The notes below the pieces were generated by a model. The model made no database searches. It was not told the DNA's origin and saw only the letters and a program-made list of their open reading frames with translations. Below are positions 23,865-59,636 of a DNA stretch of 64,000 nt, one piece after another (positions within the stretch are counted from its first letter, which is position 1; each line of letters starts with the position of its first letter). The position numbers and the translations under genes are program-made. Source of the DNA: Desulfoglaeba alkanexedens ALDC (GTDB taxonomy: Bacteria > Desulfobacterota > Syntrophobacteria > Syntrophobacterales > DSM-9756); contig NZ_CP040098.1 of the NCBI RefSeq assembly GCF_005377625.1, forward strand, positions 2,411,501-2,475,500. The letters are read 5' to 3'.

Positions 23865-24381
23865 ACATCGGCTTCAAACCGAAGGAAACCGGTCGGCACC
23901 GCGCTTCCAGGCGTGGTGCCGAAGCGAACCACACCCCGGAGGGCGCAGAGGAAGGCCTTTTCTCTGCGCCCTTGGTGTCTCTGCGGTGGTTTCTCTCTTC
24001 GCCGACTTTCCTCCTCGTTCCCAACCTCCAGCCCGGGAACGGCGTCATGGGAATCGAAGCTGGAGCTTCTGCACAGTTGTGTTCCCAAGCTGGAGCGTGG
24101 GAACAAGGTCAAAAAATCCCCCTCTCCCTTGATGGGAGAGGGTTGGGGTGAGGGTGAGAAAATTAACGTATGTCAATCAGTTACGTTCCCCTCCCCTTAA
24201 TCCCCTCCCACAAGGGGAGGGGATTAAGGGGAGGGGGCGCCGACTTTTCCTGGAGCGGATGTCGCGAACTCCGTCTTGACTCCGAGTCGGGCTGTGCTAA
24301 AAATATCCGTTCTGTTTTCGGACGGTTGCAGGCGCGACTATTCCTTCGGTTACGGCTCGGCATCAAGGAGGCGTTGGCGGC
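23865..24381. repeat. groEL-ileS intergenic repeats
   Basis: An imperfect hairpin GCACCGCGC/GCGTGGTGC lies at 23896-23919. A 10-bp perfect inverted repeat follows, GGGCGCAGAG at 23941-23950 against CTCTGCGCCC at 23962-23971. It could end groESL transcription but lacks a T-run. A type A triple hairpin is at 24017-24104 and type B pyrimidine-rich hairpins at about 24110-24238. No gene is visible. Confidence 0.65.
24276..24303 (+). promoter_or_regulatory. Candidate sigma-70 promoter of ileS-lspA
   Basis: TTGACT (24276-24281), 16-bp spacer, TAAAAA (24298-24303), about 80 bp before the ileS ATG. No T-box leader was recognised. Confidence 0.45.
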
Positions 24382-28396: not shown

Positions 28397-29242
28397 GGCG
28401 CACGCTCCTTGACGCGTGGAGTCCGTCCTTTTCCCGCTTCCTTATACACGTTTTTCCCCTCGTTCCCAAGCTCCAGATTGGGAACCGCCTCATGGGAATC
28501 GAAGCTGGAGCTTCTGCACAGCTGTGTTCCCAAGCTGGAGCTTGGGAACAAGAAGAAAAAAACGGAATGCGGTGGTACGAACCTGCCGGAACCCCGCCCG
28601 CCTTCAAACGGAAGGCGTCTATGGCCTTTTATCGGCCGTTTTTTCGGATGTATTGAGTGTTCGTTGCCTTGTTTCCCCGGCGATCTTTGGCCCCTGTGCC
28701 GTGCCCGAGGCGCGAAACGGCCGGCGGAAAAATCCCCCTCTCCCCCCTCCCCTTAATCCCCTCCCACAAGGGGAGGGGAAATAGGATTGCCCTCGTTCGC
28801 AAGCTAGGGCTTGCGACCAAGGTCAAAAAATCCCCCTCTCCCCCCTCCCCTTAATCCCCTCCCACAAGGGGAGGGGAAATAGAACTCCCCTCGTTCCCAA
28901 GCTAGGGCTTGGGAACAAGGTCAAAAAATCCCCCTCTCCCTTGATGGGAGAGGGTTGGGGTGAGGGTGAGAAAATTAACGCTTGTCAATCAGTTACGTTC
29001 CCCTCCCCTTAATCCCCTCCCACAAGGGGAGGGGAAATAGAATTCCCGTCGTTCCCAAGCTCTGGCTTGGGAACAAGGGGGAACGGTGTTCCACGCCCGA
29101 AAGTCGGCGCCGCAGCAGGTTGTCCCGAAACTGACAAAAAACGTCACCTGCCTTCCCGGATTCGTCAGTCGGCCGGGGACGGTCTCTCGGTCCGGCGTAG
29201 CCAAGTGGTTGAAACGTCATGCCTATTTCTTTCGCCGTTTGG
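28397..29242. repeat. Repeat-dense intergenic region upstream of the pilin gene
   Basis: Type A triple hairpin at 28462-28549. Then at least three blocks of type B hairpins (about 28725-28790, 28823-28880, 28920-29045) alternate with single short palindromes of the GTTC(C/G)CAAGCTAGGGCTTG kind (28797-28822, 28890-28917, 29050-29077). No gene of credible length or composition was found in about 850 bases. Confidence 0.75.
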
Positions 29243-32420: not shown

Positions 32421-32680
32421 TTGGTAGCGTTCTAAAGTGGAGACCTTAAGCAAAAGGATAACGAGGGTGAAAAAATCCCCCTCTCCCTTGATGGGAGAGG
32501 GTTGGGGTGAGGGTGATAAAATCAATGTATGTCAATCAGTTACATTCCCCTCCCCTTAATCCCCTCCCACAAGGGGAGGGGAAATAGAATTTCACCTTGT
32601 TCCCAAGCTCCAGCTTGGGAACACAAGTGTGGAGAAGCTCCAGCTTCGATTCCCATGAAGCCGTTCTTAAGCCGGAATCG
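32421..32680. repeat. Truncated TTGGTAGCG element followed by a type A repeat
   Basis: Left end TTGGTAGCGTTCTAAAGTGG at 32421, then type B hairpins to about 32592. The right terminal repeat is missing: a type A element (32599-32680) takes over directly after GAAATAGAATTT. The gene gap 32395-32792 holds nothing else recognisable. Confidence 0.7.
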
Positions 32681-36462: not shown

Positions 36463-36843
36463 ATCAGGGCTTCCACCTTGTTCCCAAGCTCCAGCTTGGG
36501 AACACAGTTGTGCAGAAGCTCCAGCTTCGATTCCCATGAGGCCGTTCCCAAGCCAGAGCTTGGGAACGAGTGGAATTCTATTTCCCCTCCCCTTGTGGGA
36601 GGGGATTAAGGGGAGGGGAATGTAACTGATTGACATACGTTAATTTTCTCACCCTCACCCCAACCCTCTCCCATCAAGGGAGAGGGGGATTTTTTGACCT
36701 TGTTGCCAAGCTGTACCTTCCACCTTGTTCCCAAGCTCCAGCTTGGGAACGAGGGGAAACGGAGCTGATGCGCTTGCTGCTTCAAGGCCATCTGGTTCTA
36801 CCTCAGAGGGTCACCCTGGATGTCGTTCTAAAAGATCCGCACC
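36463..36843. repeat. Intergenic repeats: type A, type B and a 117-bp duplicated element
   Basis: Type A triple hairpin at 36480-36567, type B hairpins at about 36580-36700, then a 117-bp element at 36727-36843. That element recurs in inverted orientation at 46289-46405 with a single mismatch. Its inner edge touches the stop codon of the dsbC-like gene. No gene is visible. Confidence 0.8.
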
Positions 36844-43772: not shown

Positions 43773-44633
43773 ATGAGCAAGGTGTCTATTGTCATTCCTG
43801 CCTACAATGAGGCGCTGAACATCGGGAACACCATATCGGAAATCCGTGAGATTCTTCCCGATGCGGAAATCCTCGTGGTGGACGACGGTTCTACGGACGA
43901 CACGGCCGAAGCGGCTCGAAAGGCCGGAGCCTATGTTTGGAGCCACCCGTACAACATCGGCAACGGGGCTGCCGTGAAAACAGGTATCCGGCTGGTTTCC
44001 GGAGACAAGGTCGTTCTCATGGACGGCGACGGCCAGCATCATCCGGCCGACCTTCCCAAGCTGCTCGAAGCCGCGCAGAAATTTGACATGGTGGTAGGGG
44101 CGCGGCTCTCCGACGGGCATGCCAACGGTTTCCGCCGATGGGCCAACCGGTTTTACAACACGCTAGCCCGGTACGCCACCAAGTTTCCCGTCAAGGACCT
44201 GACATCCGGCTACCGCGTTTTCGACCGGGAGACGGTGCTACGCTACCTTTATCTACTGCCCAACACCTTTTCCTATCCCACCACCATCACCCTGGCTTAC
44301 TTGAGGAGCGGCCGCACGGTCTGTTACGTCCCCGTCCGGGTGAGGCGCCGAAAGGGGAAAAGCAAGATCATGCCCGTTCGCGACGGCATGCGTTTTTTTC
44401 TCATCATCTTGAAGGTCACGACGCTTTTTTCGCCCCTTCGGATCTTTCTGCCGGTGAGCCTGGCTTTTTGGGGCCTGGGTCTTCTGAACTACGCCTACAC
44501 GTACGTCACCGCGGGCCGCTTCACCAACATGTCGGCGCTTCTCATGACCACTTCCATCATCCTTTTCATGATGGGCCTCATCAGCGAACAGATCACCCAG
44601 CTCCGCTACGACCGGGTGGAAAACGGAGGGTGA
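43773..44633 (+). CDS. Glycosyltransferase family 2 (polyprenyl-phosphate sugar transferase-like)
   Basis: 286 aa. The GT-A core has VSIVIPAYNEALNIG, VVDDGSTDDT and the DxD-type MDGDGQHHPADL, then SGYRVFDRE and a basic RRRKGKSKI motif. Two hydrophobic segments near the C-terminus (about 225-275) anchor it to the membrane. This resembles DPM1/ArnC-like enzymes that move a sugar to a lipid carrier. It begins a surface-glycan cluster. Confidence 0.88.
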   Translation: MSKVSIVIPAYNEALNIGNTISEIREILPDAEILVVDDGSTDDTAEAARKAGAYVWSHPYNIGNGAAVKTGIRLVSGDKVVLMDGDGQHHPADLPKLLEAAQKFDMVVGARLSDGHANGFRRWANRFYNTLARYATKFPVKDLTSGYRVFDRETVLRYLYLLPNTFSYPTTITLAYLRSGRTVCYVPVRVRRRKGKSKIMPVRDGMRFFLIILKVTTLFSPLRIFLPVSLAFWGLGLLNYAYTYVTAGRFTNMSALLMTTSIILFMMGLISEQITQLRYDRVENGG

Positions 44634-44692
44634 ATGGGAAACAGGCTTGAATATTTTCTGGTGTCGAGAAGCAGGCGTGGCAAGCTAAGTCT

Positions 44693-44904
44693 TTGGTAGC
44701 GTTCTAAAGTGTAGACTTTAAGCAGTAAGGTTAACGAAGGTCAAAAAATCCCCCTCTCCCTTGATGGGAGAGGGTTGGGGTGAGGGTGAGAAAGTTAACG
44801 TATGTCAATCAATTACATTCCCCTCCCCTTAATCCCCTCCCACAAGGGGAGGGGAAATAGAATTTGGCATCAAATATTAGGTCTATTATTTTCTACGCTA
44901 CCAA
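44693..44904. mobile_element. Complete 212-bp miniature inverted-repeat element (MITE-like)
   Basis: Left end TTGGTAGCG and right end CGCTACCAA are perfect 9-bp inverted terminal repeats. The flanks repeat a short target, GTCT immediately outside both ends (or AGTCTT if the terminal T/A belongs to the flank), which looks like a target-site duplication. Internally it carries TCTAAAGTG(T/G)AGAC, TAACGAAGGTC and two type B hairpins. There is no coding capacity. Partial copies occur at 32421, 53571 and (inverted) 59636. Confidence 0.8.
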
Positions 44905-44941
44905 GTCTTTGTGGTCACGCTGTAAATGAGTCAAGGCGGCA

Positions 44942-46087
44942 TTGCGAAAGAGGTTAAGAAACTTGTCCCGAAGTGTCTTGGTCATAACCCGCAATTTGCC
45001 TCCCCTGGTGGGTGGTATGGAGCGTCTCGGGTGGCACATAGTGAAGGCATTTTCCGAGTCGTTTCATGTTCATGTGATCGGTCCGGAGGGATGCGGCAAG
45101 TATCTGCCCCGCAAGGTGACTTGTACTGAGGTTCCCCTGCGACCACTGGGAATCTTCTTGGGGAAGACAGCACTTAACGCACTCCGGCAGGCGGTTGGGT
45201 TTAAGCCTGAAATTACTTTTGCTGGAAGCGGCCTTACAGCGCCGATGGCGTTGGTTGCCGCCCGCCTATCGAGGTCAAGGTCTTACGCCTATGTCCATGG
45301 CCTGGATCTCGTTGTCCCCCGTACGGTGTACCGTTGGTTTTGGTTGCCTTGTCTTCGCTTGTTGGATGGAATCATAGTCAACAGCCGCGCCACATTTGCA
45401 ATAGCTGAGCGAGCAGGGATTGCTTCTGAGCGGATCCGAGTGGTGCATCCAGGAGTGACGATGCTCGAACTGGAAGCCCGAGCCGCGTCCTGGTTCCGCT
45501 CGGCCTACGGGGTGGGAGATCGACCCATGCTGCTTTCTGTGGGGCGCCTTACCCGTCGGAAGGGACTCATGCACTTTGTGGCTCGAGTGCTCCCAACGAT
45601 AGTTCGAAAAAAACCGACCGCCTGCCTCTATATCGTCGGCGACGTTCCTAGAGGTGCACTGATGGCGGAGGCTGAGGAACCCGAAGACATTCTTCGCGCA
45701 GCCCGTTCTGCAGGGGTTTCGAAAAATGTTTGCTGGCTCGGCCACCTGCCGGATGAAGCGCTGCAGAAAGCCTATGCGGCTTCCGACGTCCATGTTTTTC
45801 CGGTCCAAGATCTCCCAAACGATCCTGAGGGTTTTGGAATGGTTGCTTTGGAGGCTGCCGCCTTTGGGACGCCGACCGTGGCCTACGCCGTGGGAGGCGT
45901 TGTGGATGCTGTAGCGGATGGTGTCTCCGGGTTCCTTGTGGCGCCGGGAGATACTGCGGCTTTGGCCGAAGCCGTGCTGAGCTTGATGGATAAGCCGATG
46001 CCCAGGGAGAAGGTTCGCCGATTTGCAGAAGGCTTTGCGTGGCCTCGGTTCAACAAAGCCATCGTGCGTGCCGTTGGAGCGGATTGA
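44942..46087 (+). CDS. Glycosyltransferase family 4
   Basis: 381 aa GT-B enzyme. N-terminal SVLVITRNLPPLVGGMERL and the C-terminal nucleotide-sugar site (SVGRLTRRKGLMHF; PEGFGMVALEAAAFGTPTVAY) are typical. No ATG is suitable: TTG at 44942 or TTG at 44963 (after AGAGGTTAAG) are the candidates. The stop overlaps the ATG of the following truncated methyltransferase by 1 nt. The MITE ends about 40 bp upstream, so its promoter may be displaced or supplied by the element. Confidence 0.85.
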   Translation: MRKRLRNLSRSVLVITRNLPPLVGGMERLGWHIVKAFSESFHVHVIGPEGCGKYLPRKVTCTEVPLRPLGIFLGKTALNALRQAVGFKPEITFAGSGLTAPMALVAARLSRSRSYAYVHGLDLVVPRTVYRWFWLPCLRLLDGIIVNSRATFAIAERAGIASERIRVVHPGVTMLELEARAASWFRSAYGVGDRPMLLSVGRLTRRKGLMHFVARVLPTIVRKKPTACLYIVGDVPRGALMAEAEEPEDILRAARSAGVSKNVCWLGHLPDEALQKAYAASDVHVFPVQDLPNDPEGFGMVALEAAAFGTPTVAYAVGGVVDAVADGVSGFLVAPGDTAALAEAVLSLMDKPMPREKVRRFAEGFAWPRFNKAIVRAVGAD

Positions 46088-53502: not shown

Positions 53503-54275
53503 AGCGTGACGATGTGCGTTATATCGCTTCCGTCCGATGCGTGACCGTTTCGAAAACCGCACGTAACATCTTGGTAGCGTTCTAAAGTGGAGACCTTAAT
53601 CAAAAAGGTTGACGAAGGTCAAAAAATCCCCCTCCCCTTAATCCCCTCCCACAAGGGGAGGGGAAATAGAATTTGGCATCAAATATTAAATTTATTCCAC
53701 CTTGTTCCCAATCTCCAGCGTGGGAACACAACTGTGCAGAAGCTCCAGCTTCGATTCCCATGAGGCCGTTCCCAAGCCAGAGCTTGGGAACGAGGGGGAG
53801 AAATCCCCTCTCCCCCCTCCCCTTAATCCCCTCCCACAAGGGGAGGGGAAATAGAATTCCACCTTGTTCCCAAGCCGGTTTCGGTTCAGTCGCCATGCGC
53901 TTGCCGGCTTCAATCGGAGGGGAAATAGAATTCCACCTTGTTCCCAAGCCGGCTTGCCGGCGACGGGGGGCTTGCCGGCCTCGTCGCGGTTCGGAGCAAC
54001 CTTCCGCATCAAGCCTGCCTTTTAAGGAAACAACGCTCCCCGCCGAATTATAGAACAAGACATTCAGGTGAGCTCCTGGGCGGGAGCCGTGACCTCCATG
54101 GCGGCCGCAGCGGAAGCCTTTGATGGGATGCGGGTGGTTTGGCGCGTGGATGTTCAAGATTTTGTCGGTTTCTCTTTTCGCCGGAATTTTTTCGGGCATC
54201 GGCTGCGCAGAAGATTGCCGGAAAGTCGGGCAGGGAGACGGTTGAGGTTCTCGGACACGATAGGGGGTGGTCCTC
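53503..54275. repeat. Intergenic repeats upstream of flaG
   Basis: Truncated TTGGTAGCG element from 53571; it has the inner GGCATCAAATATTA of the complete copy but loses its right end near 53696. A type A triple hairpin (53704-53790) follows. Type B hairpins lie at about 53807-53850. Two scraps of GAAATAGAATTCCACCTTG (about 53850 and 53920) are present, with a type C core near 53946. No gene is visible to 54275. Confidence 0.7.
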
Positions 54276-59170: not shown

Positions 59171-59636
59171 TTCCCCTCCCCTTGTGGGAGGGGATTAAGG
59201 GGAGGGGAACGTAACTGATTGACATACGTTAATTTTCTCACCCTCACCCCAACCCTCTCCCATCAAGGGAGAGGGGGATTTTGTGACCTTTTCCCCTCCC
59301 CTTGTGGGAGGGGATTAAGGGGAGGGGAGTGTAATTGATTGACATACGTTAATTTTCTCACCCTCACCCCAACCCTCTCCCATCAAGGGAGAGGGGGATT
59401 TTGTGACCTTTTCCCCTCCCCTTGTGGGAGGGGATTAGGGGGAGGGGAGTGTAATTGATTGACATACGTTAATTTTCTCACCCTCACCCCAACCCTCTCC
59501 CATCAAGGGAGAGGGGGATTTTGTGACCTTTTCCCCTCCCCTTGTGGGAGGGGATTAAGGGGAGGGGGAGAGGGGGGATTTTTTTGGCCTTCGTTAACCT
59601 TTTTGCTTAAGGTCTCCACTTTAGAACGCTACCAAA
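59171..59636. mobile_element. Tandemly expanded TTGGTAGCG element with exact 120-bp period
   Basis: The unit TTCCCCTCCCCTTGTGGGAG starts at 59171, 59291, 59411 and 59531, a period of exactly 120 bp. Three full units and a partial fourth differ by a few bases (for example AACGTAACTG in the first unit versus AGTGTAATTG later). The array ends in the inverted left end of the MITE (CGCTACCAA at 59628-59636). The opposite terminal repeat is absent. Confidence 0.85.

What the first reader, a model, noticed from the sequence alone, without database searches (positions are those of the whole stretch)
44693..44904. Complete 212-bp MITE-like element with TTGGTAGCG terminal repeats and target duplication
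Perfect 9-bp inverted ends, duplicated flank (GTCT/AGTCTT) and four related copies in 64 kb show a mobile non-autonomous element. Its cargo is the type B hairpin pair that also occurs alone, so the hairpins may spread through this element.
Basis: seen in the sequence. Interest (0 to 1): 0.6.

Follow-up and report, generated by a model that had tools for sequence, protein, structure and literature searches.

The report
Miniature transposon carrying a triplex-hairpin pair
A short, gene-less jumping DNA element, repeated dozens of times in this bacterial genome, bears the insertion signature of a little-known transposase family (ISH6) and carries a pair of triple-helix-type DNA hairpins that it has helped to multiply.

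Summary
The genome (3.37 Mb) holds 142 such ends (control 7). Of 37 independent two-ended insertions, 11 have exact and 24 have at least 7/8 matching 8-bp duplications (shuffle means 0.4 and 1.6); target AAnnnnTT. A related empty site in the same genome has one target copy. The same ends occur in other phyla; one pair flanks a 411-aa transposase matching NCBIfam ISH6 (E 9e-55, below its curated cut-off), and published ISH6 targets are AANATNTT. No ISH6-type transposase was found in this genome. So: a non-autonomous ISH6-type MITE, its partner lost or absent. The cargo is an inverted pair of G/C-rich hairpins; one fits the published triplex motif TM_ECO exactly (at least 100 exact copies here). 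About half of the motif's loci lie by a recognisable MITE end; the rest sit among other palindromes, mostly with MITE-type borders. The MITE spread the hairpins, but not alone. New variant of a known kind.

The parts
44687..44694 (.). left copy of the 8-bp target duplication, AAGTCTTT
44695..44902 (+). the MITE, 208 bp, GGTAGCG...CGCTACC, no gene
44695..44718 (+). left terminal inverted repeat (L type), consensus GGTAGCGTTCTAAAGTGGAGACCT
44879..44902 (-). right terminal inverted repeat (R type), consensus GGTAGCGTAGAAAATAATAGACCT
44752..44786 (+). hairpin 1, exact match to the published triplex motif TM_ECO
44787..44819 (+). spacer between the hairpins, conserved among pairs in and outside the MITE
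44820..44854 (-). hairpin 2 in opposite orientation: purine hairpin plus third G-rich tract, related to but outside the exact TM_ECO pattern
   Evidence: only hairpin 1 is matched by the pattern
44903..44910 (.). right copy of the 8-bp target duplication, AAGTCTTT
32423..32451 (+). left MITE end followed by a hairpin pair; right end not seen, other palindromes follow
53573..53601 (+). left MITE end followed by a one-hairpin form broken near its right end
59605..59633 (-). left MITE end beside a tandem array of hairpin pairs (59173-59567)
24120..24222 (+). hairpin pair without MITE ends
28932..29034 (+). hairpin pair without MITE ends
36584..36686 (-). hairpin pair without MITE ends

Best explanation
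The element is a miniature inverted-repeat transposable element whose ends are those of an ISH6-type insertion sequence (Mutator superfamily of DDE transposases). SHOWN: fixed ends, 8-bp target duplication at AAnnnnTT, many copies, a related empty site, the same ends around an ISH6-like transposase gene in another bacterium, no such gene found in this genome. INFERRED: an ISH6-type transposase, supplied by a lost or never resident full-length copy, bound the two ends, cut them and joined them with an 8-bp stagger into AAnnnnTT sites; gap filling made the duplication. The inverted pair of triplex-type hairpins was taken up between the ends before or during the burst and was multiplied with the MITE; later deletions inside the hairpins and insertions of other palindromes gave the 145-148-bp and the 237-668-bp forms, and pieces of the MITE core gave, or were joined from, the solo hairpin pairs.
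For: 54 matches to the element in the genome; 142 ends against 7 control; 123 against 0. 41 two-ended copies of different length, each between an L and an R end. TSD: 13 of 41 exact at 8 bp, 0 or 1 at every other length from 2 to 15; after merging shared flanks 11 of 37 exact and 24 of 37 with 7 or 8 matches, shuffled pairing means 0.38 and 1.57, largest of 10,000 shuffles 4 and 8. Target A 38, A 36, T 36, T 37 of 41 at positions 1, 2, 7, 8. Paralogous empty site of equal length without the second 8-mer. Foreign ends: 50 stretches, 49 of 50 with the next base T and 41 of 50 with AA six bases before TT, neither demanded by the pattern. L148 carries both ends 1632 bp apart and a 411-aa protein that hits NF041731 ISH6 at E 8.8e-55, best of four families; L187 has the same kind of end and a protein 48% identical over 211 aa. 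Foreign miniature copies L145, L166, L169, L174 have exact 8-bp duplications, read by eye. PMC3942029 (passages and sections 11, 12 read): ISH6 duplicates AANATNTT, found also for ISDesp5 of Desulfobacterium; superfamily IRs 18-39 bp, DRs of 8 or 9 bp.
Against: The L148 protein scores 186 bits, below the NCBIfam cut-off of 240, and Pfam has no family for it over its cut-off. The flanks of L148 itself (AAATTATT, AATTTCTT) are not identical. The middle of the published target (A at 4, T at 5) is only weak here, 15 of 41 each. 13 of 37 independent copies have fewer than 7 matching TSD bases, some from one-base errors in placing the end. No transposase with these ends was found in the genome, so present activity is not shown. 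The search with the L148 protein had no positive hit anywhere to prove its sensitivity. L172 and L149, two other foreign candidates, show no matching duplication.
Confidence: 0.9

Rival explanations
1. The MITE is moved by the resident IS256-family element, the only intact Mutator-superfamily transposase seen in the genome, whose ends begin with GGTAGTGT or GGTGGTGT.
For: Two copies 99.8% identical over 1375 bp with a 412-aa transposase; ends share GGTRGYGT with the MITE. IS256 and ISH6 are related families of one superfamily (PMC3942029).
Against: Inner parts of the ends differ (TTGTGTAAATTC in the IS, AAAnnnnAGACCT in the MITE). PMC3942029 reports no target motif for IS256, whereas the MITE has a strict AAnnnnTT target. 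The same inner motif surrounds an ISH6-like gene elsewhere.
Confidence: 0.06
2. The repeats are REPINs or BIMEs moved as single strands by a REP-associated tyrosine transposase, and the common ends are only a conserved border.
For: The core is a palindrome pair, and solo pairs and tandem arrays exist. The genome has Y1_Tnp genes (6 matches), and a truncated frame that I read by eye as Y1-like lies beside a hairpin in L092.
Against: Y1 transposition leaves no target duplication (recalled); here an 8-bp duplication is plain. None of the six Y1_Tnp loci is flanked by MITE ends or by either hairpin; one has the other, type A palindrome.
Confidence: 0.04

Closest known systems
ISH6 family insertion sequences (p-MULT 2, Mutator superfamily); nearest named bacterial example ISDesp5 of uncultured Desulfobacterium
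   Same: 8-bp duplication of an AA....TT target; ends starting GG (terminal C on the other strand); same ends around an ISH6-like transposase in L148
   Different: The element is 208 bp and has no transposase gene; the nearest transposase scores below the curated ISH6 cut-off; the sequence of ISDesp5 was not compared
Intrastrand triplex motif TM_ECO (PIT elements; Holder et al. 2015, PMC4666352)
   Same: Hairpin 1 fits the published pattern exactly; two motifs in inverted configuration as described for five sites in E. coli
   Different: Here the pair has a fixed spacer and sits inside a transposable element with ends and target duplication; triplex formation was not tested
REPINs and BIMEs with RAYT transposases (PMC3116915, PMC2817692; search listing and start of abstract only)
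   Same: Palindromes in inverted pairs, many copies, intergenic mosaics
   Different: DDE-type ends and 8-bp target duplication; no RAYT found beside the hairpins

Membership tests
MITE | short, terminal inverted repeats, no transposase gene | tested here: met
   208 bp; 24-bp imperfect repeats; no ORF of 80 aa or more inside
MITE | target duplication of fixed length in independent copies | tested here: met
   11 of 37 exact, 24 of 37 at 7 or 8 of 8; empty site
MITE | many dispersed copies | tested here: met
   142 ends; 41 two-ended copies among 90 loci read
MITE | autonomous partner with the same ends in the same genome | tested here: not met
   none found; partner-like IS in other organisms (L148, L187). 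Not a requirement if the partner is lost
ISH6-type ends | 8-bp direct repeat | tested here: met
ISH6-type ends | target AANATNTT (PMC3942029) | tested here: met
   outer AA and TT strong, middle A and T weak; paper read
ISH6-type ends | same ends around a transposase of the ISH6 family | tested here: inconclusive
   L148 protein: best family NF041731, E 8.8e-55, 186 bits against a cut-off of 240
ISH6 insertion sequence | encodes an ISH6 transposase | tested here: not met
   no gene in the element; so it is a MITE with ends of that type, not an IS
TM_ECO triplex motif | pattern CCCTCNCCC-N3-6-GGGNGAGGG-N3-GGGNGAGGG | tested here: met
   hairpin 1 exact; hairpin 2 does not fit it (pattern)
TM_ECO triplex motif | forms an intrastrand triplex | not testable with these tools
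   needs CD, NMR or footprinting
REPIN/RAYT | RAYT gene flanked by the same palindrome | tested here: not met
   6 Y1_Tnp loci, none with these hairpins

The most novel reading that the evidence does not exclude
ISH6-type MITEs recurrently carry pairs of triplex-capable purine hairpins because these help the element (for example by exposing single strands, halting replication forks or holding the ends together), so that Mutator-type MITEs are a general vehicle by which intrastrand triplex motifs become abundant in some bacterial genomes and not in their relatives. Support: another deltaproteobacterial genome (L151, L174) has MITEs with the same ends and its own pair of purine hairpins, and a Nitrospinota MITE (L145) has a long purine hairpin; purine-arm stems are 14 bp in the window element, 9 in L174, 11 in L151 and 13 in L145, against shuffled maxima of 9, 8, 8 and 9 (30 shuffles each). 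Against: all three 99-bp MITEs of Planctomycetota and Brocadiaceae that were tested have none (6 bp, within their shuffles).
Probability: 0.15. Interest if true: 0.65.

Novelty: new variant of a known kind. Interest (0 to 1): 0.45.

Why it matters
Triplex motifs of the TM_ECO kind are reported in 262 proteobacterial genomes with very uneven numbers (PMC4666352), and the passages read give no vehicle for their spread. Here a transposable element with defined ends, target and transposase type carries them in dozens of places, which makes the question testable. It also widens a small, mainly archaeal transposase family (ISH6) to MITEs in several bacterial phyla. I found no description in print of an ISH6-type MITE or of a triplex motif inside a MITE in the searches, which cover open-licence papers only.

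Tried and rejected
Rfam: no match in the window. The first end pattern was misaligned by one base and nearly empty; corrected. IS256 as partner: examined and disfavoured. An end-like site at G000:C1:1923811 (L112) lies in a region whose ORF list shows, by eye, no transposase. The third ISH6-model hit in the genome (G000:C1:1704861) matches only positions 32-164 of the model; I took it by eye as another Mutator-type remnant and did not study its ends. A tree of 145-221-bp copies was star-like with low supports, so whether the 148-bp form arose once is unresolved. ISH6-like protein on plasmids: none; solved structures: none; defence families: none. Promoter and terminator scans gave 2 promoter-like and 1 terminator-like site (shuffles 0.5 and 0.5) and were not followed. 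Empty sites in close relatives could not be used: no same-genus genome was among those searched, and none of the 38 other genomes of the order has such ends.

Rows dropped or limits: identical cores were counted once; only the first 100 of 142 ends are listed; 61 of the 62 new sites were fetched; one search scored 40 of 190 candidates, so 54 matches is a lower bound.

Full report
CHECK OF THE OBSERVATION. The 212-bp stretch 44693-44904 with exact TTGGTAGCG/CGCTACCAA ends is there. It lies between a glycosyltransferase family 2 gene (43773-44633) and a gene with glycosyl transferase group 1 and family 4 domains (44942-46087). The whole strand folds far better than its shuffles (-41.2 against -21.3 kcal/mol, z -6.6). 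The window is G000:C1:2411501-2475500 of a 3,365,583-base single contig.

COPIES. A search of that genome with the element gave 54 matches, with only 40 of 190 candidates scored. The 24-base end pattern gave 142 places with up to 3 mismatches, against 7 for the reversed control; with the target included, 123 against 0. I read 90 loci (30, 60); 86 had at least one end and 41 different copies had both, always one L and one R end. Sizes: 10 of 145-148 bp, 18 of 195-221 bp, 13 of 237 bp or more, up to 668 bp.

BOUNDARIES AND TARGET. Exact direct repeats next to GGTAGCG...CGCTACC were found at 8 bp in 13 of 41 copies (0.2 expected from cross-pairing), against 0 or 1 at every other length from 2 to 15. 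With shared flanks merged, 37 independent insertions remain: 11 exact, 24 with 7 or 8 matches; 10,000 shuffles of right flanks gave means 0.38 and 1.57 and maxima 4 and 8. The target is AAnnnnTT (A 38, A 36, T 36, T 37 of 41). For the copy in question the duplication is AAGTCTTT.

EMPTY SITE. Several copies share one insertion inside another repeat. The joined flanks of copy L020 were searched in the genome: one place, G000:C1:2276139-2276237, runs through the insertion point without the element. Over the 16 bases around it the place is equal in length to the joined filled site and has a single 8-mer there, with base changes.

WHICH TRANSPOSASE. Within the order, 0 of 38 other genomes has the ends. 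Across species genomes, the exact pattern TTGGTAGCGTNNNAAANNNNAGACC found 50 stretches in other organisms, among them Desulfocapsa, Lentisphaeria, Brocadiaceae, Planctomycetota, Nitrospinota, Deltaproteobacteria and Dehalococcoidia; records of this genome may be left out there. 49 of 50 have T next, and 41 of 50 have AA in place, though the pattern asks for neither; L146, L158 and L165 look like chance. L148 (Lentisphaeria) has both ends 1632 bp apart around a 411-aa gene, best NCBIfam family ISH6 (E 8.8e-55; 186 bits, cut-off 240). L187 (Dehalococcoidia) has the end and a 226-aa frame 48% identical to it over 211 aa. Miniature copies with the same ends occur in L145, L166, L169, L174 and L184. 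PMC3942029 (sections 11 and 12 and passages read) reports the ISH6 target AANATNTT, also for ISDesp5 of Desulfobacterium. In this genome the L148 protein finds nothing, and the ISH6 model finds only the two IS256 copies and one 320-aa frame matching a third of the model. PMC9208149 (passages) describes ISH6 as mainly archaeal, so these bacterial copies widen the picture.

CARGO. Hairpin 1 matches the TM_ECO triplex pattern of PMC4666352 exactly (outline, sections 15 and 16 and passages read). The genome has 116 such motifs with up to one mismatch, control 0; the 100 listed are exact. The paper's highest count is 143, in Enterobacter asburiae. Hairpin 2 is of the same kind in opposite orientation but outside the exact pattern. 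The 100 listed motifs form 69 loci; 35 have a listed MITE end within 250 bp. Of 16 stretches read next (L233-L248), 15 have no end; of those, 11 have the MITE-type left border, 12 the right, 9 both (borders seen). Among 40 genomes searched (own included), the 11 others with a match have only the hairpin part, single or paired, in those listed with other spacers and no such ends. So the motif is older than this MITE, the fixed pair with this spacer and these borders was seen only here, and the direction of exchange between solo pairs and MITE is not settled. The 148-bp form lacks 60 bases between the first C tract of hairpin 1 and the start of hairpin 2, at a CCC micro-repeat (and inspection).

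NESTING. Larger copies hold other palindromes (GTTCCCAAGCTCCAGCTTGGGAAC) and a second miniature element with GGGTGCAGATCTTTT ends and 9-bp duplications (5 of 8 exact), for example inside L078. An IS256 element lies beside a hairpin-type sequence in L139.

JUDGEMENT. The finding is a real ISH6-type MITE, now inactive or without its partner as far as the searches show, that took along a triplex-type hairpin pair. Being a MITE is ordinary; its family and its cargo are not.

Noticed in passing
L078:1324-1648; also L024, L052, L062, L083: A second MITE family with GGGTGCAGATCTTTT inverted ends and a 9-bp target duplication (5 of 8 copies exact), carrying GTTCCCAAGC...GCTTGGGAAC palindromes; in L078 it is nested in the ISH6-type MITE.
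   Followed up: partly
G000:C1:93492-103495, 3126079-3126613; window 59173-59567: Tandem arrays of the hairpin pair, periods near 109-125 bp, some with five or more units in a row.
   Followed up: partly
L151, L174 (JACRNJ010000032.1, JACRNJ010000015.1): ISH6-type MITEs in another deltaproteobacterial genome with their own pair of purine hairpins in the reverse arrangement.
   Followed up: partly
L027 and L029 (G000:C1:3351771 and 12943): 3176 identical bases near both ends of the contig: probably an uncut circular overlap of the assembly, so some copies are listed twice.
   Followed up: partly
L139, L140: IS256-family element, 1375 bp, 412-aa transposase, ends GGTGGTGT/GGTAGTGT; in L139 next to a hairpin fragment, in L140 beside a truncated frame that looks Y1-transposase-like.
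   Followed up: partly
L052 (G000:C1 near 31044): A palindrome of about 44 bp made of two L ends back to back, perhaps a minimal derivative of the MITE.
   Followed up: no
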